Shown: in pieces, positions 11,581 through 55,855 of the stretch
Layout: each line of letters opens with the position of its first letter
How positions within the stretch are numbered: position 1 is the stretch's first letter
NCBI GenBank assembly: GCA_027563935.2
Contig: CM050447.1
Coordinates: forward strand, 78,663,461 to 78,727,460
Length of the DNA: 64,000 nt
DNA from: Costus lasius
Taxonomy: Eukaryota; Streptophyta; Magnoliopsida; Zingiberales; Costaceae
Direction: 5' to 3'
The notes under the pieces: model-generated
Told to the model about the DNA's origin: nothing
Seen by the model: only the letters and a program-made list of their open reading frames with translations
The model's database searches: none
Position numbers and translations under genes: made by a program

Positions 11581-11582
11581 AT

Positions 11583-23826: not shown

Positions 23827-23835
23827 CATGAAAAA

Positions 23836-23980
23836 GGGGGCGCGGGGCCTGTGAAGGGTCCCTTCCTTCCAATCAAAGGAAGGGGTCGGCTATCGGGTGC
23901 GCACGAATCGTAAAGTGTGTTAAACGCACGCGAATCTTGAAGAGGGAGTAACCAGGGTTACCGTATAGAGTTAAGGATTT
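23836..23980 (+). repeat. Left terminal inverted repeat of the giant transposon
   Basis: The core GAAGGGTCCCTTCCTTCC is followed by a block through GGGTGCGCACGAATC and ACCGTATA that matches the right end in reverse. The outermost bases are a G-rich run here and a T-run at the right end, so they have diverged. The repeat contains its own small inverted pair, CCTTCC ... GGAAGG. Confidence 0.85.
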
Positions 23981-24358
23981 GTCGCGTTTTCGCCGCTCGC
24001 ATTCCCGTCGGAACACGTAAACCTTTTTCCTCGTCTCTTCGTCTTCCCGCCGGATTGCAACCCTTTCTGCCGCCGTCGACTCCGGGGAGCGAAGCCATTG
24101 AACCCTGCCGTCGACATTCCTTTATGTGTAGGAGATAAGGAAGGATCAGGTACCAGAAGTGTAGGAGATAAGGATTTGTCGTGTTTTCGCCTCTCGCATT
24201 CCTGCCGGAACGCGTAAACCCTTTTCCTCGTCTCTTCGTCTTCCCGCCGGATTGCAAACCTTTCTGCCACTGTCGACTCCGGGGAGCGAAGCCATTGAAC
24301 CCTGTCGTCGACATTCCTTTATGTGTAGGAGATAAGGAAGGATCAGCTACCAGAAGTG
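23971..24358 (+). repeat. 197-bp tandem duplication next to the left terminus
   Basis: The block beginning AAGGATTTGTCG at about 23973 recurs at about 24170 and runs to the phrase CCAGAAGTGT. Both copies contain TTCCCGCCGGATTGCAA and GGAGCGAAGCCATTGAACC with scattered substitutions. The right terminus has only a short counterpart (TTCCCGCCGGAACGCAA reversed near 44740), so the duplication is one-sided. Confidence 0.85.
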
Positions 24359-24529
24359 TTTAGGGATCATCTGCCAAGTTCTCTCGTCGACCTGATTCTT
24401 GGTTTCCAACGCGTTCTCGTCGTCGACCTTGCCTTAACGAACTCTTGGTGAGAAATATTATTTGTATGTATGCTTGGATAGTCTGCTATTGCGTATATGA
24501 GTACACCATCCATTTTTTGTTGATTCTAC

Positions 24530-25035
24530 TAACTTGTAAGGGTAAATCTACTAACTTGTAAGGGTGATTCTAGTAACTTGTAAGTATTATTCTACTATAA
24601 TCTATATAGATTTTACTAACTTGTAAGGGGATTCTATTAACTTGTAAGTATGATTCTACTATAATCTATATCGATTCTACTAACTTGTAAGGGTGATTCT
24701 ACTATATTCTAGATCGATTCTACTAACTTGTAAGGGTGATTCTACTAACTTGTAAGTATGATTCTACTATAATCTATATCGATTCTACTAACTTGTAAGG
24801 GTGATTCTACTATAATCTATATCGATTCTACTAACTTGTAAGTATTATTCTACTATAATCTATATCGATTCTACTAACTTGTAAGAGTGATTCTACTAAC
24901 TTGTAAGTATGATCCTACTATAATGTATATAGATTCTACTAACTTGTAAGGGTGATTCTACTAACTTGTAGGGGTAATTCTACTAACATGTAAGTATGAT
25001 TCTACTATAATGTATATAGATTCTACTAACTTAAG
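24530..25035 (+). repeat. Minisatellite block 1 (TACTAAC type)
   Basis: Units GATTCTACTAACTTGTAAGG alternate with units containing TCTACTATAATCTATAT, about two dozen in all with decay toward the ends. The core is the same as in the big array at 30035-32520 and in the same direction. Past 25030 it passes into three ~55-bp units containing GTGATTCTTTAACTTA and TGATATTTATCACA. Confidence 0.9.
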
Positions 25036-25194
25036 GGAACAGAAAGAAACACGGGCTGGGTATGATATTTATCACACCAGTGATTCTTTAACTTAAGGGA
25101 ACAGAAATAATCATACTTACAGTGATTCTTTTACTTAAAGGAAGAGAAAGAATCACGAGCTGGTTGTGATATTTATCACAGTCGTGATTCTTTA

Positions 25195-25350
25195 ACATCG
25201 TGGTGGATTAAGGCTGCAACAACGTGGGTTAGGCATGTAACATCGTGGATTAAGGCTGTAACATCGTGGACAAAGGGTATAATATCGTGGATTAAGGCAG
25301 TAACATCGTGGATTAAGGATATAACATGGTGGATTAGTCATGTAACATCA
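25195..25350 (+). repeat. 21-bp ATCGTGGATTA repeats, block 1 (forward)
   Basis: About seven units of the type AACATCGTGGATTAAGGCTGT lie head to tail. This is the first of four blocks of this family in the transposon; blocks 1 and 2 read forward, blocks 3 and 4 reverse. Confidence 0.85.
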
Positions 25351-25658
25351 TGGTTTTAATTTGTTTTAGTACAATTTCAATTCCTTTTAGTAGAAGTCGC
25401 CTACTATTGCTTAGAATATGTGTATACCATGCAATTTTTGTTGGTTTAGTAGAATTTAATTCGTTTTTTGTTGGTTATGTGTTGAATATGAGTATAATGT
25501 TAAATGTTGTAGTTGGTAAAGTAGAATTTAATATGTTTTTAGTAGAATAGAGTAGGTTTTGTGTTGTATGGTGATTCTACCATAGAATATGAGTATACCA
25601 TATGGTACCATAGAATTTGAGTTATTTTTTGTAGTAGCTAATAATTTTACTGTAGACT

Positions 25659-28204
25659 ATGAGTCGATCAAGCTCAGATTCAGAATCTAGTTCAAGCAAT
25701 AAAGTAGAAAAAGAAGCGGCCCAAATGCCTCATTTAGAAAGAAAAGCAAAGTCTATACAAGGGACCCGTCCTATTCTTAGTAGATGTTCGTTGAAGAGGT
25801 TGCATAATTGTATAGACAACCTAGTTATTGGTAATGCAATAAAGGAGCGGTTGTCGGATACCCCGTTTGGGATTTTATTCACGGGATCTTCTGTAGCATT
25901 GGATATGCTAGCAGTTGAATTCTTGATACCGAGATGGGATGAAGAAAGGCAGGGATTCCTGATAAATGGTAATTTTATTGGTTTTACCGTTCAGGATGTA
26001 TCAATCATCCTTGGTTTGCCCGAACGAGGGGAGTTGGTGAACTTTGAACTAGAGAAACTGAGTTCAGTCTTCTTCGATGAGGAATTTAGTGGCCAAACAA
26101 TAACAAGAGGCCTAATTGAGTCAAAGCTAAGTCAAGTTAGTGCTGAGGGAGATGGAGTGGAACGGTGACCGAGTGCTCCAGCTTGCTATTTTGTATATAT
26201 TTTGTACTTTTCTATTCTCCAGGCTGAACTATAGTGTGGATATATCCTTGGTTCCGTACGTGGATGATTTATCAAAAATCAATAACTATAACTGGTCTGA
26301 AGTCGTTCACCGGTTTCTAAGGCAAGAGTTGTCACGCAGTAGCAAGAAGAAAAAATTGAGTGGCGTTGGTGGATGTGCGATTGTACTTTCTGTGAGTATT
26401 ATCCTTAATGGCATTAGTTTATTCTATCAGAATTATTATAATTTGTTAATATTTGCTTACTTTGTGATAGGTTTGGCTATATGAGCATACCCGACTTTTT
26501 CTATCTAGTCGGATCGACAGTGTTTACCCACAGCTTTTCCGGTGGATAAATGTCAAGAATCAGCGGCGGGCAACCTATTTTAAAAACCTTGAAAGCATAT
26601 CAAGGACTTCGGTATGGTATATTGTATTCCTCCAATTAGAAATATTAGTTAATTTAGTTGTTATTCTAATTCCATTTTATTATTATTCTATTATTTGTTG
26701 TAGTTGATATTCAATGTTGTATTGGATGATATGGAACATGACCGAATTGATCATGTTCCTCATGTTGAGATTGAAAGTGGACCAAGTGTGCAGCGTCCCA
26801 TTTTGGAGGACAAGGAGGTTGCTTATAGGAAAACGATTGAGGAGCTTGAGGCTCAGCTCAGTCAGATTATATCAGAGAATAAAAATCTTATTGCTGATAA
26901 CCAGAGGCTCCAGATGGATTTGGGGAAAGTGAATAAGGAGAAAGATGATATTGGAACTGCTTGCACAAGCCTTCAGGCGAATGTAAGTAGGATACAATGT
27001 GAATTTGCATGCCACACAGAGGAGCTTGAAAGGAGAAATGCTGAGCTTGTAGTAGAGAATCAACAGCCGCAATTGAATTTGTTGGAAACTGCTAGGGATA
27101 ATACTGAAGTAAATTGGGTCATTAATAAGATGAATGCAGAGTTGATTGAAGAGAATAATAAGTTCAAAGAGGAGATTGATAAAGTGAGCAAGGATTCCAA
27201 AGGTAAAGGGAAGGAAGGAATAGAAGATAGTAGATCAATTGATGAAGGCTCTACTGATATATCGGATACAGCGTTGGTCTTATGTACACCTAGGGAGAAA
27301 AGAAAGAAGCGCATCCGAAAATCTTCATGGGCAATAGTTAGCCCATACACACAAGAGAAGAAACGTGTGAGGTCATCTGCAGATGTAAATGTATGTCTTC
27401 TGAAGTTGTCATATTACTAGGTTGCATAGACTATTCTGATCATTTTTGCTGAAATTGTTGGCAGGTGCTAACTATAGATGAGGATGCCGAAGACATTCCG
27501 GTGGAGGACAAGGTAAGGGAGAATTATTTGTTAAACTTCATGTGATTTCTAATTAACGGTTATGTTTCCTATACAGTTAAAGGGTATTCAGGATTATGTT
27601 GGGAGAGACACTCTTTCAGAAGAACAACGAAGCCAATTAGAGGAATACATGTCACGGGACATGGAAGTTTGGCATGAGCATAAGCCAATGAGGTTTCAGA
27701 AATGTCATTTATATAATGTCTTGATCGGAACAATGATTGTTGGAGATGTGAGTATCCACAAACTTAGTAGTAACTTTTTACATATAATGTCATTTATATA
27801 ATGTCTTTGAATTCAAGTGCAACTCACAAGTCAGCATTGCTAGATTATGTAAGCATGAATTTCGTTTGTTGGTATTGTTGGTAGAAATAAAAGATTGGTA
27901 CACATTATCTATTCACTACTTAAAATGCAAAAACCCTCTATATGTGCAGTTTGCTGTTCTCTGAGGCCATATCTACTGTCAAAGTAGTGGAAAAATTGAT
28001 ATTGGCAAGTGGCCGGTCGTTTTTGATGAAAGTTGCCCGAAGCAATATGCTAGTGTAGATTGCGATTTTTTTGTAATGAAGTATGTGGAATGTATAACAA
28101 GTGATAGAGAATTTGACTTCTCTCAAGATGATATGCCCAAATTACGGGCAACTATTTCATTGGATATGTTTAGAGGGTTTATAGAGTATTCGGGAATGGT
28201 GTGA
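25659..28204 (+). pseudogene. Decayed multi-exon gene: mobile-domain-like N-terminus, coiled coil, Ulp1 C-terminus
   Basis: ATG 25659 starts a Ser-rich head, then a domain resembling those found ahead of transposon-borne Ulp1 proteases (GFTVQDVSIILGLPERGE; after a frame change near 26140, PYVDDLSKINNYNWSEVVHR; after an intron with GTGAGT donor, VWLYEHTRLFLSSRIDSVYP). An exon from about 26704 to 27390 is Lys/Glu/Asn-rich and likely a coiled coil (EELEAQLSQIISENKNL). A short exon near 27465-27511 follows. The next exon (27577-27744, GIQDYVGRDTLSEEQRSQLE) and the last (to 28204) match the minus-strand gene at 29054-29947. The last has the catalytic-Cys region DCDFFVMKYVE. The exon with the catalytic His is missing and an in-frame TGA precedes the Cys exon, so the protease is dead. 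Exon edges are approximate. Confidence 0.7.
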
Positions 28205-28389
28205 ACATATTTCTAATGGGTTTTGTTTGATTTTGTACATTATTGTATTGGATTGTAAATGATTTTGTATAACCTTGGACTAATGTACAGTGTACATATT
28301 CATGAATTTTTAATTTAATGCTATGTACCGTTTAGAGATTATAGCACCCTTTAGAGCATTTTAGTAGTATTGTGTAATTGAATGAAAAT

Positions 28390-28910
28390 GTTTGCAACTT
28401 CGTGGACAAAGGCTACAACATCGTGGATCAGGGACTTAGCATCGTGGACATGGCCAGCAACATCGTGGATCAGGGACTTTGCATCGTGGACATGGCATGC
28501 AACATCTGTAAGGGTGAATCTACTACTTTGTAAAGTTGATTCTAGTAACTTGAAATTATTTTGTACAATCGTGGATTAAGCTGTAACATCGTGGATTCGG
28601 ATGTAACATCGTGGATCTGGGACTTATCAGTGTGGACTCGGACTGACACATCGTGGATCAAGCCCGTAACATCGTTAATTAGGCACTTAGCATCATGGAC
28701 TTGGCCTTCCACATCGTGGATCAGGGAATTTGAGTCGTGGACGAGTCGTGGACTTGGATGTCCATCATCGTGGATCTGCCCTGTAACATCGTGGATCGAT
28801 CTGTAAGATCGTGGATCATGGTTGCAACATCATGGACCAAGATTATAACATTGTGTATCAGGCCTGTAACATCGTGGACAATCTGTGTAATATCGTGGAT
28901 TCGACAATAA
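28390..28910 (+). repeat. 21-bp ATCGTGGATTA repeats, block 2 (forward)
   Basis: Around 24 units of the AACATCGTGGATCAGGGACTT/GTAACATCGTGGAT type follow, interrupted near 28505-28560 by two units of the TACT..CTTGTAA family. The two minisatellite families are therefore interspersed here. Confidence 0.85.
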
Positions 28911-29053
28911 TACGTCACTATACACATTGAAGACATTAAAACAGGATTAAAGTGTACAATGAAACCACTAAACCATTGAACATTGAGGTTACAAAATTGA
29001 ACAATGTGTATAGTTGCGCATTGAACAGCTTACTATACAATAATGTGACGTAA

Positions 29054-29947
29054 CTATACCCAGTTAGATTGTAAAACCCCCTTAAAAAGTTCAAGGCTGA
29101 CTATAGCCCTAATGTTTTGCATTTGAGACTGGGAGTAATCTAAGGGACGATCATATATTAAACATTCTATACACTTTAATACAAATAGTGCACAATCTTT
29201 GTGGTCTGGATCCTGGATCGGCCAATCTTGCTGCCACTCTACTGGAAAAGGCCGCATGTCTACCTTCCCATTTGTCTCAGAGGCATAATGATCCCCTAAA
29301 TAAAGTGCCTGCAAAATATTACAAAATTGCAGAGGATGAGCATCAATGTATTAACAGCAAGTAAAAAAACCAAATTTGATACGTACATATTTTTTAATTA
29401 ATTGTTTGTCAGATTGGGAGGTGCGTAATGAATTATACACGCACATCTGTTTCTCCTTGAAATCAAAATAAATGAGGAACCAGTGCTCATTGTTTATTAC
29501 GGGGCAGAATAATCTCTCTATGCGTCTAATCCGGCTTCCATCCAAATGCTCTAGTTCGGCTCCAGCTGCGGCGTGCATTTTCTTTGCCTTATAATAGCAG
29601 CACAATGGTGAAATAAAGCTAAAAGCACGAATCTTTTGCTTTCTTTTCTCTTTGTATGTAGTCACCTGGAGACTCAGGAGGGCTGCATATGCATTAATAA
29701 CTTACATAGACAGGAATTAATTAGACATTCTACTCGTGATACTTACAAAATGCATCAAGACTGAAATGATACTTACAGGGTCGCTCACTAGTTCATTGAA
29801 CAACACCTCGCAAATTGTCGCTTTTGGTAGTTTCCATGGATATGATTCATTGAAAAGCTTTATGTGTCACGACAAGTAGGTTTCAATCTCTTCTTTCATT
29901 GCTGGTGTTAATAGATCGCATCCAGCATAATCTTTTCTCCCTATGTA
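29054..29947 (-). pseudogene. Ulp1-type cysteine protease gene, 3' exons
   Basis: Ulp1 (peptidase C48) proteins cleave SUMO-like modifiers; copies are often carried by plant transposons. Exons by splice signals are 29777-29947, 29387-29665 and 29054-29308. The middle exon has the His motif NNEHWFLIYFD followed by MCVYNSL, where the family normally has Asp in the 'YDSL' position, here Asn. The last exon has the Cys motif HKDCALFVLKCIE and ends SLELFKGVLQSNWV. The first of these exons contains a TGA (EIETYLS then stop), so it is broken. Upstream exons are not visible: the minisatellite begins about 90 bp away. The three exons are diverged counterparts of the plus-strand gene ending at 28204, and the two genes converge. 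Confidence 0.75.
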
Positions 29948-30034
29948 CTGAAGAGACAAAACTCATATGTGAACATAAGTAACTGGAAATAACATAATAA
30001 ACATACTGTGTAAATGTTACTTCAGAGTTACCTC

Positions 30035-32520
30035 ATCTTCTACTAACTTGTGGGGTGATTATACTAACTTGTATGGTGATTCTACTAACTTGTCTAGTGA
30101 TTCTACTAAATTGTCGGGGTGATTCTACTAACTTGTCTAGTGATTCTACTAACTTGTCGGGGTGATTCTACTAACTTGTCTAGTGATTCTACTAACTTGT
30201 CGGGGTGATTCTACTAACTTGTCTAGTGATTCTACTAACTTGTCAGGGTGATTCTACTAACTTGTCTAGTGATTCTACTAACTTGTATGGTGATTCTACT
30301 AACTTGTCGAGGTGATTCTACTAACTTGTATGGTGATTCTACTAACTTGTGGGGTGATTCTACTAACTTGTATGGTGATTCTACTAACTTATGGGGTGAT
30401 TCTACTAACTTGTATGGTGATTCTACTAACTTGTATGGTGATTCTACTAACTTGTCTAGTGATTCTACTAACTTGTCGGGGTGATTCTACTAACTTGTGG
30501 GGTGATTCTACTAACTTGTATGGTGATTCTACTAACTTGTCGGGGTGATTCTACTAACTTGTCCAGTGATTCTACTAACTTGTCGGGGTGATTCTACTAA
30601 CTTGTCAAGTGATTCTACTAACTTGTATGGTGATTCTACTAACTTGTCGGGGTGATTCTACTAACTTGTATAGTGATTCTACTAACTTGTGGGGTGATTC
30701 TACTAACTTGTATGGTGATTCTACTAACTTGTGGGGTGATTCTACTAACTTGTATGGTGATTCTACTAACTTGTCTAGTGATTCTACTAACTTGTCGGGG
30801 TGATTCTACTAACTTGTCTAGTGATTCTACTAACTTGTGGGGTGATTCTACTAACTTGTATGGTGATTCTACTAACTTGTCTAGTGATTCTACTAACTTG
30901 TCTAGTGATTCTACTAACTTGTCGGGGTGATTCTACTAACTTGTCTAGTGATTCTACTAACTTGTATGGTGATTCTACTAACTTGTCGGGGTGATTCTAC
31001 TAACTTGTATGGTAATTCTACTAACTTGTGGGGTGATTCTACAAACTTGTATGGTGATTCTACTAACTTGTGGGGTGATTCTACTAACTTGTATGGTGAT
31101 TCTACTAACTTGTCTAGTGATTCTACTAACTTATCGGGGTGATTCTACTTACTTGTCTAGTGATTCTACTAACTTGTCGGGGTGATTCTACTAACTTGTA
31201 TGTTGATTCTACTAACTTGTGGGGTGATTCTACTAACTTGTATGGTGATTCTACTAACTTGTGGGGTGATTCTACTAACTTGTATGGTGATTCTACAAAC
31301 TTGTCTAGTGATTCTACTAACTTGTCGGGGTGATTCTACTAACTTGTCTAGTGATTCTACTAACTTGTCTAGTGATTCTACTAACTTGTCGGGGTGATTC
31401 TACTAACTTGTCTAGTGATTCTACTAAATTGTCGCGGTGATTCTACTAACTTGTCTAGTGATTCTACTAACTTGTATGGTGATTCTACTAACTTGTCGGG
31501 GTGATTCTACTAACTTGTATGGTGATTCTACTAACTTGTATGGTGGATCTACTAACTTGTGGGGTGATTCTACTAACTTGTATGGTGATTCTACTAACTT
31601 GTATGGTGATTCTACTAACTTGTCTAGTGATTCTACTAACTTGTCGGGGTGATTCTACTAACTTGTCTAGTGATTCTACTAACTTGTCAGGGGTGATTCT
31701 ACTAACTTGTCGGGGTGATTCTATTAACTTGTCTAGTGATTCTACTAACTTGTCGGGGTGATTCTACTAACTTGTCTAGTGATTCTACTAACTTGTATGG
31801 TGATTCTACTAACTTGTCAGGGTAATTCTACTAACTTGTCTAGTGATTCTACTAACTTGTATGGTGATTCTACTAACTTGTAGGGTGATTCTACTAACTT
31901 GTATGGTGATTCTACTAACTTGTCTAGTGATTCTACTAACTTGTCGGGGTGATTCTACTAACTTGTGGGGTGATTCTACTAACTTGTATGGTGATTCTAC
32001 TAACTTGTGGGGTGATTCTACTAACTTGTATGGTGATTCTACTAACTTGTCTAGTGATTCTACTAACTTGTCGGGGTGATTCTACTAACTTGTCTAGTGA
32101 TTCTACTAACTTGTCGGAGTGATTCTACTAACTTGTATGGTGATTCTACTAACTTGTCGGGGTGATTCTACTAACTTGTCGGGGTGATTCTACTAACTTG
32201 TCTAGTGATTCTACTAACTTGTCGGGGTGATTCTACTAACTTATATGGTGATTCTACTAACTTGTCTAGTGATTCTACTAACTTGTCTAGTGATTCTACT
32301 AACTTGTATGGTGATTCTACTAACTTGTCGGGGTGATTCTAACTTGTGTAGTGATTCTTCTACTAAGTTGTCGGGGTGTTTCTACTAACTTGTCTCGTGA
32401 TTCTACTAACTTGTCGGGGTGATTCTACTAAGTCGTCGGGGGGATGTTTAATAGTTATATGGTGATTCTACTAACTTGTATGGTGATTTTACTAACTCAT
32501 CGGGTTGATTCTACTAACTC
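30035..32520 (+). repeat. Large 21-22 bp minisatellite (TACTAAC array)
   Basis: About 115 head-to-tail units of TGATTCTACTAACTTGT plus a variable 4-5 base tail: ATGG, CTAG, CGGGG or GGGG. The tails are not random. Runs such as CGGGG-ATGG-GGGG-ATGG-GGGG-ATGG-CTAG recur (about 30300, 30650, 30990, 31180, 31940), which shows multi-unit duplication. Most units are multiples of three, so long open frames appear on the plus strand; these are artefacts. Sequence decays at both edges, most visibly after 32330. Confidence 0.97.
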
Positions 32521-32599
32521 GTCGGTTTGTTCTTCTATTCAGCCTTAGTGTTCCCTGTCTATGCTGGTTACATTGTAAACTTTATTCAACATAAAATAA

Positions 32600-32890
32600 T
32601 GTCTGATCCTCGATCTTGCTGACTTAATCCACGATAATGTATCCAGATTCACGATGTTACAGCCAGGTTGCACTGTGAATCCATCTTAATCCACGATGTT
32701 GCAAATTAATCGAGGATTAATAATTCCATATCCACGATCAAGGGCCTTAATCCGCCCTGTTACAGCCAGATCCACGATGATGCAGTCTTAATCCACAATG
32801 TTACAGCATGTTCCACGATGTTACAGGCTAATCCTCGAACTTACAGCCTAGTCCAGCGTGTTACAGTTTTCTTATTCACGGCATATTGCC
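32600..32890 (-). repeat. 21-bp ATCGTGGATTA repeats, block 3 (reverse)
   Basis: About ten degenerate units read TTAATCCACGATGTTACAGCC, which is the reverse complement of the units in blocks 1 and 2. Confidence 0.85.
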
Positions 32891-33984
32891 ATCAATGAGT
32901 ATGCAGCCACTAATTAAAAATATAATAAATACAGATGTCTATCCTTTTTACAAACAACATTTCTTTTGAAATAACATCGTGGACAGATGGGACACCTATA
33001 CCATGCGCCTGACATGCCTACAAAATTCAACTGCCAACTTATCCTCCTAATCCTCCTGGCTTTGTATGTATGATCAATTTTATCCTATTGCATAGCTATG
33101 TCTCCTGTACGCTCATGGGTTAGGACTAAATTTGACCAGACTACCATCTATCAAGATTCACGGGTGGTGATATAAACTAAACAGACGACCTCCTATACCA
33201 CGCGGCTGACATGCCTACAAATCACAGTTCACGCGTTTCACGTGTGTACAATTGGACATTTTATAGTTTCACTATAAAATCCCAATAACATACATAATCT
33301 TCTCATTCGTAGTGAAGTGAGTCGAGTTCCGAGATGTTACTCCAATGCTCTTGTCATTCGTATTGATACTATGGCAATATCCTCCCTTATCGTGGATTAT
33401 GGTTGGTCTTATAGGCAAATGCGTGCATTCTACTTGGACGTGCTATGGCAAGCTCATAAATTGACCATGACAGAAAATCCTTTCCAGTTCTGCCGAAGTA
33501 TAATTGTGGCCAGCATATGATGGCCACAATTCTGGGCCCGATTTGTTCATCAGACTCGGAGTTTGGGCAAGTCGGATGGGTTGACAAAATGGACGGGCTA
33601 TACCTTCCTCAGTCCTGTGGGTGATTCCGGATGTGCTATGGCAAGCTTATAAGTATCGAGAGCGTGCCCGATGAGAAAGTTGGACGGCAGGATACAACAG
33701 TCTCTTGTGATGCGTGTATGCCGGCATCCCGGATTGCAGTCTCATGGTATAGTTTTTGGAGGAATTGGACGGACTATGGTAAGCTTATGATCTAAATATT
33801 GCCTACCGCACTGGGATATGACAATATTTTGATTATAAGCTTGTCATAGTACGTCCGTTTTCTCAAAATCTAAACACGAGACCTCCCTCTGGTTAATAAT
33901 TGCATGTTACGATGTGAATAAGTGAGGTGTATATATGAAACTTCTTTATACAAATTATATGCTGGTTGGATTTTACCCTAAACC
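32891..33984. other. Unassigned interior of the giant transposon
   Basis: I see no gene here. A word close to CTATGGCAAGCTTATAA recurs near 33440, 33640 and 33777, and once reversed near 33836, each beside a 'ttggac(g)g' word, suggesting old local duplications. CACGCGGCTGACATGCCTACAAA occurs twice with small changes (near 33004 and 33200). Confidence 0.5.
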
Positions 33985-34560
33985 CTCAACATAAATTAAT
34001 GTCTAATCCACGATGTTACAACCTTATACCACGATATTGCATACTTAATCCACGATGTTAGAACCTTATTCCACGATGTTGAAGCCTTAATACACGATGT
34101 TGCTGTCTTACTCCACGATGTTGAAGCCTTAATCCACGAGGTTACAAAGTTACTCCACGATGATACATGACTAATCCACGATGTTAAAGCCTTCATCCAG
34201 ATGTTATAGCCTTCATCCATGATGTTAAAGCCTTAATCCATGATGTTACATGACTAATCCACGATGTTACATGACTAATCCACGATGTCACAGCCTTAAT
34301 CCAAGATGTTATAGACTTAATCCACGATGTTAAGCCTTAATCCACGATGTTATAGCCATAATCACAATGTTACAGCCTTAATCCACGATGTTTAAGGCTT
34401 AGTCTACGAAGTTACAGCCTTAATCTACATAATGAAGACTTAATCCACGATGTTACATGACTAATCCACGCTGTCACAGCCTTAATCCACGAGGTTTAAG
34501 GCTTAATCCACGATGTTACATGCCTAACCCACTTTGTTGCAGATTTAATCCACAATGTTT
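33985..34560 (-). repeat. 21-bp ATCGTGGATTA repeats, block 4 (reverse)
   Basis: Roughly 25 units of TTAATCCACGATGTTACAGCC and variants, on the opposite strand to blocks 1 and 2. The block ends just downstream of the transposase gene's 3' end. Confidence 0.9.
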
Positions 34561-34957
34561 TTCGAGCCTTTGCCTACTGACAAATCGACAAAACCTGTGT
34601 AAAGACATTGTGTAAATATCCAACCCTCAACCAAGATAAAGACAAATTTTATAAATATCATAAACTCATCCAATATAAAGAATCCCCTTTCAAACAACAT
34701 CAACCAATATACATACAAATAAGTTTAATCGCCATAAACTCAACCTCTACATACACAATGTATATACGGCATCCGTTACAGGTTAAAAGAATGGTTCACA
34801 TTGTCTAATAATACAATCAGATTATACTATGAATTCTGTTCGTTTGGCACATTGGGAACAAACTGTGACGGAGCATAGCGAGAGCCTGCATCGGAACACT
34901 ACACGATGAAAAATAATGTTAGTACCAACTTTAAAAGGCATATCATTACTGTATATA

Positions 34958-35504: not shown

Positions 35505-36610
35505 TATTGTGAAGCAGCAAATGGATGTGTAAGAGGCATGGGAACAGGAGGCTGTGTAAATCTCCCACTATTTCTGTTTGCCTTGGACGCACTAGTCTTT
35601 TTGGGTCATTTTTCTAGGACACTTTTCTTCCTTTTCTCTCTTGGACCTTTCTTCACAGCCGGGGTCTTTATGGTGATATTTCTGTCTAGACCAATGTCAT
35701 TGCTGTCACTATCTACCTCACATTGCTCATCAACATGCAGTATCTTCTGCACATCTGCCCTCAATTTATCAACGGCTATTTCAATCTTCTCGAGGGCTTG
35801 CCTGGAATGTTGACTTAGTGTTGCAAGATAGTATTGTTTCTGGCATATGCGCTTATACAAGGAAGTTAATATCTCTTTTTCATTCCCATCGGAAGCAGGT
35901 AGACAACTATTCGAACCATTGTCATCTCTTGCATACTTTGTCCACCTTTTCAATATATATATATACTGTTGGGGTAGTGAACACACATCGTTAACTGTCA
36001 ATACCTTGAACGCATGCCTACACAAAATTCCACTGCGCTCAAATAATTGGCACGTGCAATTCACATTAATGGAAGCAGAGTTGTAAGTCACGGTTTTAGA
36101 TCTACGCATGGTAGCACATATTAATGTATATGTCTTTACATTAGAATGACAATCAACACTCATTGAATCTACACACCAATCCACATGATTCATGAATTGC
36201 TCAGCCACCTCCTCATATATTACTCTGGTGTAGACTGCAGCAGCTTCTTTCAAAATATTCCCAAATACCGCGAATGGTGTACTATTCCTGCTCTTGAAGT
36301 CAGATTTGGTTTCCTTCTCACGAAAAAATGTAAGAGCCTTATCATATTGATCAAAAAATTCAAACAAAGATAGTTTTTTCCAAAAAAATCTCTTAAAGTG
36401 AGCATTCATGCTCTCACTACGTTGTGTGGTGGTCATATCAGCTGAGAATGTTTCCACTCGATAGCATGCTGCCCATTTCTCACGAAGTTGATAAAAATTA
36501 ATGATCCACGAATTTTCAGATAGATTATACTTACGTATTAGATCCTCCCATAGTTTTTCAAATGTTTCAACGGTGTAATTCTCATAAATACAGTGTCTGA
36601 AATCTTGGAC

Positions 36611-38951
36611 TGTTATAACCTAAATTTTATAAATTTAATTTTTGGAAATTCAGAAATTTTATTTTGGATTTTTCTGATTTTTCTAGAATTTTTTTGGAAT
36701 TTTTAAAAGGTTAAAATTTTGATTTTTATAAAAAAGGTTGATTTTGCGCTCGCGGGGGATCGAAACCGCGTCGCGCGGCGCGCGATTGACGCCGTCTAAC
36801 CAACGCGTCGATTTGTGTTTTTAATATAATATCGGATTTGATATTTTTGTATTAGATTTAAATTTTGATTTTGGGGACCGAGTCAACCCGTCGTCTTACC
36901 CGCGGATCTCGGCGATTTACTCGACGCCGCGTTCTCGCCGTATGGAACGCGTCTTGCCTCTATATTAGAGGGCTTTTGTTTGAATTGAGGATTTTCGAAA
37001 CCTAACCTGTCTTCAAGCCTCGAAGCGCCGCCAGGAAGGAGAAATCGCGCTCGAACCAGTCGCCGGAGTTCTAGCGGCGCCGCCTCGTGTTCCAACCATC
37101 CAGCGCCTCCATCGACGGCGATCTCTGTGTTCTGGGCTACGATACATCATCGTAGCAAGGCATGTAGGCTTCTGTGAAGTTTTAGTGAAGTTCCGTTTGG
37201 GTTTGGGTATGTTTTGTGTATCGACGGCGGGGCGCCACCGTCGATACCTTCTGTCGCTTCGGATGCTTCGACCGTGGGTCAAAAACTCGACGGAGCTGGT
37301 CGTAGAGCCTCGCTTCGTCGTCGGGAGTCTACTGGCGAAGTTTGGTGGTGATCCGATCTTCGACGCGCCCTCGGGAGCTCGCCGGCGCAAGCAGCGGACG
37401 CAAGTCCGGCGGCCTTGCGCGGCGGCCGTCGGGCGGCGCGGGCGACGAACGATTCGAGTTTTTATTTAAGTTTTGGGTTCGGTTTATTTTGAAATAAACC
37501 GTCGGCTATGTTGAAATCGATTTAAACCGGTTCAATTGGATTGAGCGGTTCAATTCTGTTTCGGGTCAGTACTTGAATTTCGACCGGTTCGACCATGATT
37601 CGGTCGAATCCGGGCCGGTTCAGGTAGCCGTTGGAAAGATAATTAAATTTCCTATCTAATGGTAGTCTGTATAGCTTTAGATGAGGTTTATATTTTGTGT
37701 AATTGAAGTTAGAAGTCTCGGTTTAACTTGGTTCAGGGTGAATTTGATCGGTTCAGTGCAATTCTGTCCGGTTCAGTGGGTTTTAGGTTCGGTTCATATG
37801 ATCTGAGACTGGTTCTCTAGGTTTAGGGTTATGTTCTACTTGTTGGTGGTTTTGGTTTTCAAATTAGAATGTTTATTGATAGAGTTCATGTACAAATTTA
37901 TGTTATAGAGTGGTTAATCCAATAATCAGCCTGCATCGTGTGATAAACAATTATTGGCTTTTCAAAAGGACTCAGAGATAACATCGTTTGAGGTAGGAAT
38001 CTTACCCTACTCCTTTTGTCACAGTGTCAAGAACTTATAAGATTTGTCACTTATTCCTTTGATTAGATATATGATGCATATATGATAGAATTGACTGACA
38101 CTGATATCTAATTGCTTCATCTGCTTGAGTTGTTTCTGAATTCCTATTGACCTCAATTTATCTTATTTATTTGGTCATATTCTGCTTCTATATAAATGGT
38201 TAACAAATCTGTTTTGAGATACCTGATATATTGGCTTATGAGCCTGGTTGAACAATTGTGTATCTGAGATATTGAAATGTATGGAACCGTTGTAAATCTG
38301 TGATGACAAAGTCGTGATTTATATTGACCTCTGACCTGGATGATTTATTCTCCAGTGGCCTGTTTATCTGAGTTATAGTTCTGATTATATCAGACTATCT
38401 GAGTTACCGGTTAGGGCACCGCCAGTTGTCCTCGGACAATACTACGGATGTCAGATGTTGGACGCAACATTCACCGGACTGTTTAGGACAGTCGTTCCAT
38501 TGCATGAGCAACAGTGGAAACACTCTGAAAATGAGTGCGGCTCTTGATTGAGATCTGTTGGCCAGCTTGATGATTTGCACGACATTCCTATATTATTTGT
38601 ATATCATTGTTTCAGTTATTGTGTTATCCTGTTATTTGATTCCCTCACCATGTTTGTTGGTTCCTACTTAGCATTTCTGCTAACTCCCTTTGTTTCTCTT
38701 CCAGGTACAGAGTTAGCTTCTGGGAGGGATAGAGTAGATAGCAGATACCAGCCGAGTTAAGATAGTTGTCTTTCGTATTTTATTCAGTTGATAATTTGGA
38801 TAGTTGTATTCAGATATTGTGTTGATATTAAATTTGGATTGTTTATTAAATAAAGGTTATGTGATTATTGTAGTTCTCTGGTTCCTATCAATATTGTTAC
38901 TCCCTAGGGAACCCTGAGCTAGAAATAGCCGGCTTCCGCAGGGGCATGACA
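36611..38951 (+). repeat. 5' LTR of the gag-only Gypsy element
   Basis: This 2.34-kb LTR runs from TGTTATAACC to GGGGCATGACA. It contains repeated CCGGTTCA/GGTTCAAT words (37520-37800) and the conserved boxes shared with the solo LTR at 7236-8910. Its first 200 bp include an antisense tRNA-like sequence. Confidence 0.95.
36746..36808 (-). other. Antisense tRNA-like sequence in the 5' LTR
   Basis: On the minus strand GCGTTGGTTAGACGGCG resembles a tRNA D-arm (A box region), and CGGTTTCGATCCCC resembles a T-arm/B box. The 40674-40736 copy is better preserved. The acceptor stem does not close, so it is not a functional tRNA gene. Confidence 0.5.
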
Positions 38952-38958
38952 ATTTAAA

Positions 38959-38970
38959 TGGTATCAGAGG
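38959..38970 (+). other. Primer-binding site of the gag-only Gypsy element
   Basis: TGGTATCAGAGG lies seven bases after the LTR end and fits the 3' end of initiator tRNA-Met. Confidence 0.9.
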
Positions 38971-39134
38971 AATAGGTTTAGAGGTATAAGTTTCTGTGGG
39001 CCCATAACCCACAGGTCAGAGCTATAGGTTCAGTAAGAAAACCTAAGGGCATAGGAACCTCAGGACTGGGTTTGGGTTAAGGTTAAAATAAATAGGTAAA
39101 CAATTATTATATAACATGTTATTTTGTTGGCAGG

Positions 39135-40460
39135 ATGGCACCAAGAACTAGAGGCAGAGCAATCCCAAGTCAAGGAAGTAGAGGCCGTGGAGGTGGAAGT
39201 CAGAGGGTGAGTGCCCACAGCATTGGAGAAGCTAGAAATCCTCCTGAAGCTGAGGTACAGTTACCTCCAAACCTACCTAGGGCCCCTACAAGAAGAAGAA
39301 GTGGGTATGAAGCCTCAGTACCCTTAGAAGCAGCACCACATGCTTCCCCTGAAGTACAAGCAGCAGTAAGGGATGAGGGTGAATCTTCTTCTCCATCGTT
39401 AGTACCTCAACCGGTAGTAAACCAACTAGTTAGGTCAGCTAATATGCTGATGCAGTTCTCACAGTTAGGAAAAGATCGATTTCGTGATTTTGGAGGAACT
39501 ACTGACCCTTGAGCAGCTAGAGATTGGTTACTAAAAGTAGAGCAAACCTTTAGAGCATTAGGTTGTCCAGATGAGCAGAAGGTAGAATTGGCCACATATT
39601 TCTTATCTGATAGAGCTGGGACATGGTGGTCTGGAATGAGAGTTACTTTTGGAAATGACCCTATCTCTTGGACCGATTTTAAAGAAGCATTCTTTGGGAA
39701 ATACTTTCCAGAATCTTTTCAGGATAGCCAGATGCAAGAATTTCTAAATCTGAAACAAGGAAAAAGGTCAGTGAATATCTATGTAACTGACTTTGAGAGA
39801 TTATCATATTTATTTCCAGAGTTGGTAACCACTGAAAGGAGAAAGTGCCAACTTTTTATTAAGGGATTACACCACACAATAAAGGAACAGATGAATACTA
39901 TCCCCTTAGATAGTTTTCAAGCAGTGGTAAATACAGCATTCAGGATAGAGGCTTCTTTAATGGATGTGGCTAAAGAAAAACAAATTGAAGAGATACAAGA
40001 ATTAGCAGAAAAGAAGAAAGTAAGCCAGACAACTAGATCAGAAGAGGAAAGAACTTATGATAATAGAGGAAAAAGATCAAGAGCAGTATTTAATAGCCAT
40101 CAGAGACCTGTACATTCTTCATATGCACCAAGCTTTAATTCAGTAGGGTCTGTGAGAAAATGCTTTAAGTGTAATCAAGAAGGACATTTGGCTAATGTAT
40201 GCCCTTCCAATGAGATTCAGTGCAACTATTGCAAAGGTTGGGGTCATTATAAGGTAGATTGCCCACGAAGAGGATTTCAACCCCCACAACAAAGTTATCA
40301 GCAGAGCTCTAGACCTAGGACTTATCAGGAGAGAACTAGTCAGATTAATCAGATGCCACAGAGAGGATTTCAGCAGCAATCTACAGCTCCAGCAAGAGTT
40401 TATGCAGTGACTCAGCAGACTCAACAGGAAACTCAAGAGGAGACTCCGGACTTGGTGTAA
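39135..40460 (+). pseudogene. Gypsy gag protein with one premature stop
   Basis: The capsid protein begins at ATG 39135 with a basic, disordered head (MAPRTRGRAIPSQGSRGRG). A TGA at 39510-39512 interrupts it at GTTDP/AARDW, where relatives have Ser or another residue. The same frame continues through the gag core (TYFLSDRAGTWWSGMR; FGKYFPESFQ; YVTDFERLSYLFPELV; FIKGLHHTIKEQM). Two zinc knuckles follow, CFKCNQEGHLANVC and CNYCKGWGHYKVDC, both C-X2-C-X4-H-X4-C. It ends at ETPDLV and stop 40460, where autonomous relatives run on into protease. The ATG at 39588 could start a product lacking the head. Length is about 440 codons. Confidence 0.9.
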
Positions 40461-40538
40461 TTCTTAGTTTTCATAGTTATGCTATTATTTTGTGTATTCT
40501 GAATTTGGAGGACCAAATTTTTTTTAATGGGTGGATAA

Positions 40539-42867
40539 TGTTATAACCTAAATTTTATAAATTTAATTTTTGGAAATTCAGAAATTTTATTTTGGATTTT
40601 TCTGATTTTTCTAGAATTTTTTTGGAATTTTTAAAAGGTTAAAATTTTGATTTTTATAAAAAAGGTTGATTTTGCGCTCGCGGGGGATCGAACCCGCGTC
40701 GCGCGCGCGCGATCGACGCCGTCTAACCAACGCATCGATTTGTGTTTTTAATATAATATCGGATTTGATATTTTTGTATTAGATTTAAATTTTGATTTTG
40801 GGGACCGAGTCAACCCGTCGTCTTCCCCGCGGATCTCGGCAATTTACTCGCCGCCGCGTTCTCGCCGTATGGAACGCGTCTTGCCTCTATATTAGAGGGC
40901 TTTTGTTCGAATTGAGGAGTTTCGAAACCTAACCTGTCTTCAAGCCTCGAAGCGCCGCCAGGAAAGAGAAATCGCGCTCGAACCAGTCGCCGGAGTTCTA
41001 GCGGCGCCGCCTCGTGTTCCAACCATCCAGCGCCTCCATCGACGGCGATCTCTGTGTTCTGGGCTACGATACATCATCGTAGCAAGGTATGTAGGCTTCT
41101 GTGAAGTTTTAGTGAAGTTCCGTTTGGGTTTGGGTATGTTTTGTGTATCGACGGCGGCGGCGCCACCGTCGATACCTTCTGTCGCTTCGGATGCTTCGAC
41201 CGTGGGTCAAAAACTCGACGGAGCTGGTCGTAGAGCCTCGCTTCATCGTCGGGAGTCTACTGGCGAAGTTTGGTGGTGATCCGATCTTCGACGCGCCCTC
41301 AGGAGCTCGCCGGACGCAAGTCCGGCGGCCTTGCGCGGCGGCCGTCGGGCGGCGCGGGCGACGAACGGTTCGAGTTTTTATTTAAGTTTTGGGTTCGGTT
41401 TATTTTGAAATAAACCGTCGGCTATGTTGAAATCGATTTAAACCGGTTCAATTGGATTGAGCGGTTCAATTCTGTTTCGGGTCAGTACTTGAATTTCGAC
41501 CGGTTCGACCATGATTCGGTCGAATCCGGGCCGGTTCAGGTAGCCGTTGGAAAGATAATTAAATTTCCTATCTAATGGTAGTCTGTATAGCTTTAGATGA
41601 GGTTTATATTTTGTGTAATTGAAGTTAGAAGTCTCGGTTTAACTTGGTTCAGGGTGAATTTGATCGGTTCAGTGCAATTCTGTCCGGTTCAGTGGGTTTT
41701 AGGTTCGGTTCATATGATCTGAGACTGGTTCTCTAGGTTTAGGGTTATGTTCTACTTGTTGGTGGTTTTGGTTTTCAAATTAGAATGTTTATTGATAGAG
41801 TTCATGTACAAATTTATGTTACAGAGTGGTTAATCCAATAATCAGCCTGCATCGTGTGATAAACAATTATTGGCTTTTCAAAAGGACTCAGAGATAACAT
41901 CGTTTGAGGTAGGAATCTTACCCTACTCCTTTTGTCACAGTGTCAAGAACTTATAAGATTTGTCACTTATTCCTTTGATTAGATATATGATGCATATATG
42001 ATAGAATTGACTGACACTGATATCTAATTGCTTCATCTGCTTGAGTTATTTCTGAATTCCTGTTGACCTCAATTTATCTTATTTATTTGGTCATATTCTG
42101 CTTCTGTATAAATGGTTAACAAATCTGTTTTGAGATACCTGATATATTGGCTTATGAGCCTGGTTGAACAATTGTGTATCTGAGATATTGAAATGTATGG
42201 AACCGTTGTAAATCTGTGATGACAAAGTCGTGATTTATATTGACCTCTGACCTGGATGATTTATTCTCCAGTGGCCTATTTATCTGAGTTATAGTTCTGA
42301 TTATATCAGACTATCTGAGTTACCGGTTAGGGCACCGCCAGTTGTCCTCGGACAATACTACGGATGTCAGATGTTGGACGCAACATTCACCGGACTGTTT
42401 AGGACAGTTGTTCCATTGCATGAGCAACAGTGGAAACACTCTGAAAATGAGTGCGGCTCTTGATTGAGATCTGTTGGCCAGCTTGATGATTTGCACGACA
42501 TTCCTATATTATTTGTATATCATTGTTTCAGTTATTGTGCTATCCTGTTATTTGCTTCCCTCACCTTGTTTGTTGATTCCTACTTAGCATTTCTGCTAAC
42601 TCCCTTTGTTTCTCTTCCAGGTACAGAGTTAGCTTCTGGGAGGGATAGAGTAGATAGCAGATACCAGCCGAGTTAAGATAGTTGTCTTTCGTATTTTATT
42701 CAGTTGATAATTTGGATAGTTGTATTCAGATATTGTGTTGATATTAAATTTGGATTGTTTATTAAATAAAGGTTATGTGATTATTGTAGTTCTCTGGTTC
42801 CTATCAATATTGTTACTCCCTGGGGAACCCTGAGCTAGAAATAGCTGGCTTCCGCCGGGGCGTGACA
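40539..42867 (+). repeat. 3' LTR of the gag-only Gypsy element
   Basis: This 2.33-kb LTR is nearly identical to 36611-38951; the clearest differences are around the GCGC-rich stretch near 40695 and a few bases lost near 41160 and 41310. A purine-leaning tract (ATGGGTGGATAA) precedes it. It is followed by TGGAC. Confidence 0.95.
40674..40736 (-). other. Antisense tRNA-like sequence in the 3' LTR
   Basis: Minus strand: GTTGGTTAGACGGCG (D-arm-like), and 34 bases from GGTTAG a perfect B box GGTTCGATCC within a 6-bp T-stem-like CGCGGG/CCCGCG. The 34-base spacing equals that of a normal tRNA. The anticodon region is a GC dinucleotide run, and the 5' acceptor strand is missing. It is probably a relic of tRNA-derived sequence (tRNA or SINE head) fixed in the LTR family. 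Confidence 0.55.
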
Positions 42868-44215
42868 TGGACAAATCTAGGAAACGTGTGAATCACCTGA
42901 GATAGGTGCGTAGCAGCATTTTGAAATATGTGCCATAGGCAAAGTCGATGGGTTGTAGTTGGCATCACATTTTGTATAGCTTTGGTAATAGCAGCTGATT
43001 GATCTGTGAATCTGGTGAGAGGTGGGCGCCCGGACATTGATTGTAAGAAGGTCTCAAATAACCAAATAAAAGATTCAGCTGACTCATCATATAATAAAGC
43101 AGCACCAAGAATAATTGTTTGCTTGTGGTGATTCAACCCAACAATAGGAGCAAATGGCATATCATACTCATTTGTCTGAAATGTGGTATCAAAACATATT
43201 ACATCGCCAAAATATGCATAATCTATAATAGATTTACCATCTGCCCAGAAAAAGTTTGCAATCTCTCCTGTTTCATTAGCTTCAATAGCATAAAAAAAAA
43301 TGAAGGATCAGCTAATCGTCGTTCCTTCAAATACTTAAGTTTACCACGCATTTCTTTACCATCCAATGTTTTCTTTCTACGTTTTTTAATATAGTTTGTG
43401 CTATCGTCTCTTAAAAACTCGACTTCATTGTTCTTTGCCACAGACTGAAGATAATTGTAAACATGTGGCCTTTTATACCAGAATCTGTCATTTGATCAAT
43501 AAGAGCACACTGAAAAGGTAGAATCTTTCTGTGCGATCTAAGCATGTGAACCTTATTTGGTGATGTCATCGGATGATTATGATTAATCTCTACTTTTGAT
43601 AAGGTTCAAACCTTATTCAAGTCAATTTTGAATTCAACCCGAGCCATACAATTGGTTCTTATCTTAGGTTGAGGTTTCTTCATTCTTTGGGTATCACGCA
43701 CTTCCCTCAACCCTTGTTTACTACAAACAAATTTACGGAATCTTAAACTCCCATCTTTTCTACGTTCCAAATGGTATTTCTTAATACTAAAACCCAATCT
43801 TTTCGCATATTCATTATAAAAATAATAAGCTTCAATTTCACCATAAAAAGTCATACCGACTGTTGGGATAATAGATGATGTTTCAGAATTCTCATTTACT
43901 GTATAATCTTCCTCGATGTTCTCAACTTTCACTGATACATGTGTTGCAGTGTCATCATCTTCCTGTTAACATATCACATATTCATCATATAGATTTCACC
44001 TAAATTGAATCATTGAATATAGATTTCACATGCTCGTTCATATCTATTCTTACCAATTTTACTTCATTCACGTCATGTTTAGGTTGAGATACCATATCTT
44101 GTTCTTCATCTGAATCTTCTGACAACTCCCATCCAAGTAGATCATTGCATGTCAATGGCTCCTCACCCTTCTCCATACCCTTCTCTATATTCTCTAAGAG
44201 TGTTCTTAGCCACAA

Positions 44216-44764
44216 TAGAATTATAATTTCTAGAAATTTAAATTAGGGCAAATAACTAACATAATCAGGAACAACACACATAAGTTTAATAAACTTTCAT
44301 ATTCTACGCAATCATGTTTCAGTATTCTCATCTACAATATAAAATTAAGAATAAGTACAAACTTTCACATGCAGAGGAAAATTGGAAGATAAGAGATAAC
44401 AACATTGAAGAAGATTGCGTTTACAATGGGAAACAGATATGTTACTTATCTAAACGCATAATATTAGTGCCAGCACAAAGAAGGCGGGGAGGCCGTTACC
44501 TCGATAAGGAGGAAGAGTCCGCGAAGCTAGACCGGGTGGTCGGACGAAGAACACTTGGTATGGTAAGGCGCTAGACGAGCAAGCAAAGTCGCCGACGGGA
44601 GAAGACGATAGAGCGCCCTTTTCTACCGATCAGGATGAAAAATCGACGATGGGTTAGTACATATTCGACGACAATTTCGTCTGTGTCGGCGAGAGGTGGA
44701 GATGAGAAAAGGGAAAGAGGGCTTGTACAGGGTTTTGCGTTCCGGCGGGAAGACGAGGAGACAT
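44216..44764. other. Upstream region of the FAR1-type gene
   Basis: This is the space between the gene's 5' coding part and the right terminus, so it should contain its promoter. It turns GC-rich from about 44480. No clear TATA box or further coding exon was recognised. Confidence 0.4.
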
Positions 44765-44906
44765 GAAAAATCTTAACTTATACGGTAACTCTAGTTACGC
44801 CATCTTCAAGATTCACGTGCGTTTAACGTGCTTTATGATTCGTGCGCACCCGATAGCCGACCCCTTCCTTTGATTGGAAGGAAGGGACCCTTCGCAGGTT
44901 TTTTTT
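44765..44906 (-). repeat. Right terminal inverted repeat of the giant transposon
   Basis: Read in reverse this matches the left end from CGAAGGGTCCCTTCC through ACCGTATA with about a dozen differences. It is followed at 44907 by CATGAAAAA, the candidate right-hand target duplication. Confidence 0.85.
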
Positions 44907-44915
44907 CATGAAAAA

Positions 44916-55849: not shown

Positions 55850-55855
55850 AAAACT

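What the first reader, a model, noticed from the sequence alone, without database searches (positions are those of the whole stretch)
23836..44906. A 21-kb Mutator-like transposon combining a FAR1-type transposase, two Ulp1 genes and mirrored minisatellites
Seen: inverted ends, a candidate 9-bp direct repeat CATGAAAAA outside them, a FAR1/MULE gene on one side, two Ulp1-type genes on the other, and kilobases of ordered minisatellite between. Known: plant Mutator-like elements of the Kaonashi group carry Ulp1-like genes. Inferred: this is a distinct, very large family in which repeat arrays are a built-in part of the element. This is the best candidate for an undescribed system in the window.
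Basis: partly seen in the sequence, partly recalled or inferred. Interest (0 to 1): 0.78.

Follow-up and report, generated by a model that had tools for sequence, protein, structure and literature searches.

The report
Giant Mutator transposon with own repeat arrays
A broken copy of a large plant jumping gene was found; relatives elsewhere in the same genome carry the same ends, related genes and ordered short-repeat arrays, and the arrays look like docking sites for the element's own proteins, perhaps to escape silencing by the plant.

Summary
Positions 23836-44906 hold a Mutator-superfamily transposon with 120-bp inverted ends (92%) and a 9-bp target duplication. The host genome shows a family: 13 convergent end pairs 6-38 kb apart; in ten the flanks share a 9-mer at 8 or 9 of 9 (swapped flanks: 3 of 156). 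All 13 have FAR1, MULE and SWIM transposase matches. Seven carry two convergent paralogues, each plant mobile domain (PMD) to Ulp1-like domain. Nine of 13 hold all six minisatellite arrays, in one orientation except in one copy. The window copy is a wreck: a gag-only LTR element splits its transposase, gene 1 is frameshifted and lacks its His exon, gene 2 has lost its PMD half.

The arrays look like protein-binding sites. In array A2 a 17-bp core has the same consensus in 12 of 12 copies (98.3% over 811 units) while spacers turn over; in B arrays an 11-bp core beats the rest in 43 of 43. One relative with 72% PMD identity has a different array around the B dyad.

Best explanation: PMD-Ulp1 proteins bind the element's own arrays to counter silencing, as VANC does in VANDALs; inferred, untested. 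It is not Kaonashi and, by FAR1 and TIRs, not a typical VANDAL.

The parts
23827..23835 (.). left copy of the 9-bp target duplication CATGAAAAA
23836..24014 (+). left terminal inverted repeat (homology from 23848; outer GGGGGCGCGGGG resembles the family's left tip)
23968..24359 (+). two 197-bp subterminal direct repeats; also reported in 7 of the 12 other copies (C3a, C3b, C6, C2b, C9, C5, C5s)
24521..25032 (+). array A1, about 24 units of 21-22 bp, core GATTCTACTA
25196..25356 (+). array B1, about 7 units of 21 bp, core AACATCGTGGA
25659..28204 (+). gene 1: PMD (PF10536, E 5.6e-12 on the joined pieces), coiled-coil-like region, Ulp1 C-terminal piece with the Cys; frameshift near 26131, in-frame stop in the last exon as I modelled it, His exon absent in this copy
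28393..28905 (+). array B2, about 25 units
29057..30032 (-). gene 2 remnant: Ulp1 domain (joined E 2.6e-15) with His and Cys, Asn for Asp; the PMD half found in other copies is absent here
30038..32525 (+). array A2, about 117 units of 21-22 bp, core TGATTCTACTAACTTGT, spacers mostly ATGG/CTAG/CGGGG/GGGG
32620..32875 (-). array B3, about 12 units
34004..34562 (-). array B4, about 27 units
35609..36605 (-). 3' part of the transposase, SWIM zinc finger
36606..42872 (+). nested gag-only LTR element 36611-42867 (LTRs 36611-38951 and 40539-42867, 98.8% identical ungapped; gag pieces between, interior 1.6 kb) with TSD TGGAC; splits the transposase
42873..44242 (-). 5' part of the transposase: MULE domain in 42873-43307 and FAR1 domain in 43609-43965
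44739..44906 (-). right terminal inverted repeat
44907..44915 (.). right copy of the target duplication CATGAAAAA

Best explanation
Shown: a family of large TIR Mutator elements with a FAR1/MULE/SWIM (Jittery-type) transposase, two convergent PMD-to-Ulp1-like genes in the fuller copies and six ordered minisatellite arrays, with 9-bp duplications at the ends. Shown: within the arrays a short core is kept while the spacers change, at a spacing of about 21 bp (two helical turns). Inferred: the arrays are clusters of binding sites for the element's own PMD-Ulp1 proteins, which, like VANC in Arabidopsis VANDALs, bind their own non-coding arrays and relieve silencing so that the transposase can be expressed. 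Further inferred: motif A and the B dyad may serve two different proteins, and the Ulp1-like domains (Cys-His-Asn instead of Cys-His-Asp) may act on SUMO marks of silencing factors or only as binding domains. The window copy itself can do none of this; it is an inactivated member.
For: Family: 13 convergent TIR pairs; flanks share a 9-mer at 9/9 in 8 and at 8/9 in 2 of 13 elements against 0 and 3 of 156 swapped flank pairs. Genes: transposase domains matched in 13 of 13, both PMD-bearing paralogues in 7 of 13. Arrays: A1, B1, B2, A2, B3, B4 all present in 9 of 13, same orientations in 8 of those 9. Core constraint: A2 site, 12 copies, 811 units, same 17-bp core consensus in 12 of 12, 13549 of 13787 core bases, although spacers differ within copies (ATGG, CTAG, CGGGG, GGGG) and between groups (C1: AAGGG/CAGGG/TAGGG; C2d: AGGGC, ATAG beside CGGGG). 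B arrays: core better kept than the rest in 43 of 43 arrays. Motif-A dimers: 1133 in the genome, 0 for the reversed control. Cross-family: upstream of a PMD gene 72% identical to gene 2, a 1.05-kb array of 84-bp units with 12 exact ATCGTGGA cores (shuffles: mean 0.10, largest 2), whose two dyads match those upstream of gene 2 at 31 or 32 of 34 positions against 26 of 50 and 33 of 55 in the linker columns. [quoted passage not shown] PMC10398659, abstract and introduction); Ulp1-bearing VANCs are said to do the same (PMC13317346, passages, citing Sasaki 2022, not held). Ikeda et al. speculated that PMDs captured by MULEs serve anti-silencing (PMC5418596, passages).
Against: No binding, methylation or expression data. 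DUF1985, the VANC domain, is below Pfam's cut-off in both proteins (24.4 and 18.7 against 35.1 bits); PMD passes in gene 1 (45.9 against 34.9) but not in the single gene-2 exon tested (23.9). Pairwise dN/dS is only mildly below 1: 0.81 transposase, 0.45-0.73 gene 1, 0.60-0.70 gene 2, with in-frame stops in many copies, so coding constraint is weak evidence at this depth. In the neutral-array simulation the free 10-column window was unusual only in B2 (2 of 60 runs as large), not in B4, B3 or B1 (16, 56 and 54 of 60); the fixed 11-column core gave 1 (B2), 0 (B4), 6 (B3) and 13 (B1) of 60, and that core had been picked on these arrays. Copies are related, so the 43 arrays are not 43 independent tests. 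Single core columns of A2 fall to 0.62 in C1 and 0.72 in C2d; C3a has 3 units only. The dyad blocks were set by eye. Which protein binds which motif is unknown.
Confidence: 0.55

Rival explanations
1. The arrays are neutral minisatellites that grew by slippage or unequal exchange inside the element and have no function.
For: Array length varies widely between copies (A2: 3 to 124 cut units); four copies retain only part (C2b, C5s, C3c, C2e). The neutral simulation reproduces the free-window contrast for B1, B3 and B4.
Against: Homogenisation acts on whole units, yet within the window's A2 four unlike spacers share one core with 18 mismatches in 1887 core bases; core kept over spacer in the other copies too, and the B dyad is kept in another family's unlike array.
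Confidence: 0.2
2. The arrays are binding sites of the transposase (FAR1 domain) that help bring the ends together, as subterminal repeats do in some other DNA transposons (recalled).
For: A1 and B1 lie within 1.6 kb of the left end; C5s, a 6-kb element whose flanks share a 9-mer exactly, keeps A1 and B4 but neither PMD gene.
Against: On the right the nearest array (B4) ends 10.3 kb from the end, or about 4.1 kb without the nested element; arrays sit beside genes, not symmetrically at the ends.
Confidence: 0.15
3. The arrays act in cis as promoters or enhancers through host factors, or as siRNA sources.
For: In the window A1 and B1 lie 5' of gene 1, A2 abuts the 5' side of gene 2, and B4 lies downstream of the transposase.
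Against: Nothing decisive; the exact 8-mers were found at 0 and 1 places in the rest of the window, and five of the six motif-A groups listed lie within 35 kb of a TIR or PMD match.
Confidence: 0.1
4. The 21-kb span is a chance chimera of unrelated repeats.
For: The outer 8-12 bases of the two ends differ and the TSD is A-rich.
Against: Twelve other pairs with the same ends, the transposase and at least part of the arrays.
Confidence: 0.01

Closest known systems
Jittery-group MULEs (group 36 of PMC6446971, table passages) and ULP-bearing Jittery-like families of melon and grapevine (PMC2528002, passages)
   Same: FAR1 N-terminal, MULE and SWIM domains; TIRs of 39-292 bp listed; ULP sequences beside the transposase are reported for Jittery-like families.
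   Different: The group-36 plant row lists one ORF, no PMD and TSD 'not indicated/8 bp'; here two PMD-Ulp1 paralogues, 9-bp TSDs, six ordered arrays.
VANDAL elements and their VANC anti-silencing proteins (PMC5735166, PMC10398659)
   Same: Non-coding arrays of a short motif in one orientation, built of tandem repeats with fast turnover; an accessory gene with a DUF1985-like N-terminus.
   Different: Long TIRs, FAR1-type transposase, PMD scores above DUF1985, two paralogues, two motif families; no binding or methylation data.
Kaonashi (KI) MULEs of Arabidopsis
   Same: MULE with an Ulp1-like gene in reverse orientation to the transposase (true of gene 1).
   Different: KI-MULEs are non-TIR (PMC2528002, passage); gene 2 here has the transposase's orientation.
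PMD-bearing MuDR-type groups 46-50 (PMC6446971, table passages) and MULE-captured PMD-C (PMC5418596, passages)
   Same: MULE that carries a PMD, often antisense.
   Different: Those rows are of other MULE clades, and the captured PMD-C are described as transposase fusions; here a FAR1-type transposase and separate PMD-Ulp1 genes.

Membership tests
Mutator superfamily (MULE) | MULE transposase domain | tested here: met
   PF10551 E 8.3e-31
Mutator superfamily (MULE) | 9-bp target duplication | tested here: met
   10 of 13 elements at 8 or 9 of 9, against 3 of 156 swapped pairs; C3b, C2b and C5 not (7, 7, 6 of 9); the C6 match is A-rich
Mutator superfamily (MULE) | terminal inverted repeats (many families) | tested here: met
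   120 bp, 92%; 13 pairs
Jittery group (FAR1 type) | FAR1 N-terminal and SWIM C-terminal domains | tested here: met
   PF03101 3.2e-15, PF04434 1.1e-5
Jittery group (FAR1 type) | clusters with Jittery in a transposase tree | not tested
   no tree was built; best named protein hits are FAR1-RELATED SEQUENCE proteins
Kaonashi MULE | no terminal inverted repeats | tested here: not met
   long TIRs
Kaonashi MULE | Ulp1-like gene | tested here: met
   PF02902 in genes 1 and 2
VANDAL | absent or short degenerate TIRs (original description) | tested here: not met
   TIR 120-167 bp; not decisive, since the group-45 row of PMC6446971 lists TIRs of 46-174 bp for some members
VANDAL | transposase of the VANDAL clade | not tested
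   no tree; the FAR1 domain is not among the motifs listed for group 45 in PMC6446971
VANDAL | accessory protein with DUF1985 | tested here: inconclusive
   DUF1985 E 3.1e-5, 24.4 bits, under the 35.1-bit cut-off; PMD scores higher
VANDAL | dense short motif arrays in non-coding DNA | tested here: met
VANDAL | protein binds motif and removes methylation | not testable with these tools
   needs binding assay and methylome
Active Ulp1 peptidase | Cys-His-Asp triad | tested here: not met
   Asn at the Asp position in every copy where the exon was read: gene 1 11 of 11, gene 2 9 of 9; His kept in all of these; the Cys is Tyr in one of 10 gene-1 copies read (C6) and kept in 10 of 10 gene-2 copies read. 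A Cys-His-Asn enzyme is not excluded.

The most novel reading that the evidence does not exclude
A second, PMD-based sequence-specific anti-silencing system in plants, independent of VANDAL: each full element encodes two paralogous PMD-Ulp1 proteins and carries two kinds of 21-bp-spaced target arrays, with the B dyad as an old target shared across families and motif A as a recent one private to this family.
Probability: 0.35. Interest if true: 0.78.

Novelty: new variant of a known kind. Interest (0 to 1): 0.62.

Why it matters
What the plant mobile domain and the Ulp1 domains do in transposons is open; that MULE-borne PMDs serve anti-silencing has been put forward as a speculation (PMC5418596, passages). 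This family supplies candidate proteins, candidate target motifs with defined cores, and diverged relatives in one genome (1615 candidates of the PMD exon at first look, 150 scored), which makes the idea directly testable. It would also show that minisatellites inside transposons can be functional target arrays and not debris.

Tried and rejected
Protein search with the gene-1 coiled coil: no match at E 0.01. Gene-1 PMD region: one match, Rosa rugosa, 23%. Viral contigs for the TIR core: none. A and B units as one family: alignment no better than shuffles (1305 of 2000 as good), so treated as unrelated. In copy C1 the right-hand arrays run the other way; I first thought of independent rebirth, but the spacer between B3 and B4 is inverted with them, so inversion explains that block. 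Methylation reading from CpG content: A arrays are poor in CG and CHG sites, B cores keep CG in 67 of 85 units matched; not decisive, not used. Genome-wide count of the B dyad: not completed. Empty site: not searched. Structure prediction and trees: not run. Papers: Sasaki 2022 (EMBO J) is not held; the melon and original Kaonashi papers are known only through citing papers. PMC7156037 was seen in passages and added nothing on MULEs.
Full report
WHAT IS THERE. The window is plant nuclear DNA (G000:C2:78663461-78727460 of a 1.279-Gb assembly). The reported span has inverted ends, 23848-23967 against 44779-44898, 92% over 120 nt, and CATGAAAAA on both sides. On the - strand lie a FAR1 domain, a MULE domain and a SWIM finger, in that order. 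The last two are separated by a nested LTR element, 36611-42867, with LTRs of 2341 and 2329 bp that differ at 27 of 2328 ungapped sites and TSD TGGAC; its interior is 1.6 kb with gag capsid and zinc-knuckle matches, too short for a pol gene. At a recalled rate of 1.3e-8 per site and year this is about 0.45 million years, so the host element is older than that.

THE TWO OTHER GENES. Gene 1 (+) joins a plant mobile domain (PF10536, E 5.6e-12, 45.9 bits against a cut-off of 34.9; DUF1985 on overlapping residues, 3.1e-5, under its cut-off), a coiled-coil-like region with weak matches only, and an Ulp1 C-terminal piece. In the window it has a frameshift near 26131, an in-frame stop in the last exon as I modelled it, and lacks the exon with the catalytic His, which 11 of the 13 copies keep. 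Gene 2 (-) is Ulp1 only in the window, but in 8 of 13 copies a second PMD lies beside it, 43-56% identical to gene-1 PMD pieces (in 7 of these gene 1 has its PMD too). In both genes the Asp of the triad reads Asn wherever the exon was read (11 of 11 and 9 of 9); alignment of gene 2 to SENP1 shows the position.

THE FAMILY. The 125-bp terminus has 40 scored matches (of 109 candidates) in the host genome; 26 of them form 13 convergent pairs 6-38 kb apart, the window's among them. I fetched all 12 others. Tested with fixed rules, the flanks of 8 of 13 share a 9-mer exactly and 2 more at 8 of 9; two reach 7 and one 6; 156 swapped pairs give 8 in three cases and never 9. The rule lets the tip be 6-16 bp long, and the C6 match (AAAAAAGGG) is of low complexity. 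The usual tips are GGGCGCGGGG (left) and, reversed, GGGAAAAAAAGG (right), which explains why the window's two outermost stretches differ; C1 has them the other way round. Transposase domains are matched in 13 of 13; both PMD-bearing genes in C3a, C4, C3b, C6, C2d, C5 and C1; gene 2 is not found in C2b, C9 and C5s and is without PMD in the window and C3c; C2e lacks the gene-1 PMD and coiled coil, C3c most of the gene-1 PMD; C5s is a 6-kb form with the transposase only.

THE ARRAYS. From left to right: A1 (+), B1 (+), gene 1, B2 (+), gene 2, A2 (+), B3 (-), B4 (-), transposase. All six are present in 9 of 13 copies (C3a, C4, C3b, C6, C9, C2d, C5, C1, window; B3 of C3a and C2d is short); 8 of these agree in orientation, C1 has A2 and the B3-spacer-B4 block inverted. 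C2b, C5s, C3c and C2e keep a subset. Both motif families, unrelated in sequence, have a unit of about 21 bp, that is two turns of the helix. Seven copies (C3a, C4, C3b, C6, C2d, C5, C2e) have a further array on the 5' side of gene 2 with 74- or 85-bp units that hold the B core as a dyad.

CORE AGAINST SPACER. In the window's A2, 111 cut units hold a 17-bp core with 18 mismatches in 1887 bases, while the 4-5-bp spacer is ATGG, CTAG, CGGGG or GGGG in 98 of them (31, 29, 25, 13). Across 12 copies and 811 units the core consensus is the same in all 12, 13549 of 13787 bases, but C1 and C2d have other spacer sets; single core columns fall to 0.62 in C1 and 0.72 in C2d, and C3a has three units. Units were cut at the core with up to two mismatches allowed and by length, so strongly decayed units are merged or dropped. 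In the B arrays, aligned cyclically to one consensus, the 11-bp core AACATCGTGGA, picked on the window's arrays, is better kept than the other ten columns in 43 of 43 arrays of four positions (0.83-0.92 against 0.61-0.83 pooled). These arrays are related by descent, so the number is not 43 independent tests. A neutral birth-and-death simulation of the window's four arrays, 60 runs each, reached the fixed-core contrast in 1 (B2), 0 (B4), 6 (B3) and 13 (B1) runs, and the free-window contrast in 2, 16, 56 and 54: clear support from B2, partial from B4, none from B1 and B3 alone.

A RELATIVE. The gene-2 PMD exon has 150 scored relatives in the genome (1615 candidates), from 100% to 41%. Exact dimers of motif A occur 1133 times, reversed control 0. 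Only the first places are listed; they appear sorted and run through C1 and C2 to 45.4 Mb, in six groups, five of them within 35 kb of a TIR or PMD match. On C1 they lie only in the C1 element, although one search lists 21 PMD places on C1. So motif A seems to belong to this family, not to PMD genes at large. Of one relative (72%, C1:17926561), chosen because C1 showed no other motif-A dimer, I could read 2.4 kb upstream: no motif A even at one mismatch, but a 1.05-kb array of 84-bp units with 12 exact ATCGTGGA cores (shuffles: largest 2), homologous to the 74-bp unit here (alignment score 104, best of 500 shuffles 34), with the two dyads kept at 31 and 32 of 34 positions and the linker at 26 of 50 and 33 of 55 (74- and 85-bp units). 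This is one locus. A copy with an 85% TIR (L039, 8 kb read) keeps A1 and B1.

MECHANISM. Constant short cores, variable spacers, helical spacing, one orientation per array and places beside the genes are what arrays of binding sites look like. VANC proteins of Arabidopsis VANDALs bind such arrays in their own elements and induce loss of methylation (PMC5735166, passages and section 10; PMC10398659, abstract and introduction), and Ulp1-bearing VANCs are reported to do so too (PMC13317346, passages). I therefore infer anti-silencing by PMD-Ulp1 proteins. What is shown is the anatomy and the constraint on the cores; binding and its effect are not shown. Selection on the proteins is only weakly visible between these decayed copies (dN/dS 0.45-0.81).

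NOVELTY. ULP sequences in Jittery-like MULEs (PMC2528002, passages and section 8) and PMDs in other MULE groups (PMC6446971, table passages; PMC5418596, passages) are known. I found no description of a FAR1-type MULE with paired PMD-Ulp1 genes and ordered arrays in the listings of paper searches, which cover open-licence papers only.

Noticed in passing
window 36606-42872: Gag-only LTR element with 98.8% identical LTRs, like the TR-GAG elements known to me from memory; stretches 75-77% alike to its LTR lie at 8131-8911.
   Followed up: partly
window 10762-17959: Copia element with a 1152-aa open frame (12525-15980) and flanking repeats 99.9% identical over 819 bp, so probably very young.
   Followed up: no
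window 610-7241: Second Copia element, pol on the - strand in several frames, repeats 610-1752 / 6128-7241 95% identical.
   Followed up: no
window 20654-21697: SOSEKI (DIX-like) match on the - strand left of the element, so the insertion may lie upstream of that gene.
   Followed up: no
window 62395-63998 and L033 7839-8766: A 41-42-bp satellite; a similar array sits within the span of element copy C2e.
   Followed up: no
window 55070-55176: Plant snoRNA R71.
   Followed up: no
window 50482-57996: Local duplications: 50482-51633 / 55856-57025 (90%), with a 70% third copy, and 51979-52571 / 53680-54267 (90%).
   Followed up: no
L039 1635-1949: A 62-bp tandem unit with an inner palindrome (TGATATTTATCACA) between A1 and B1, about five copies; similar pieces seen by eye at window 25040-25190.
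   Followed up: no
G000:C2:25451061-25453751: Motif-A dimers at a place with no TIR match among the 40 scored nearby.
   Followed up: no
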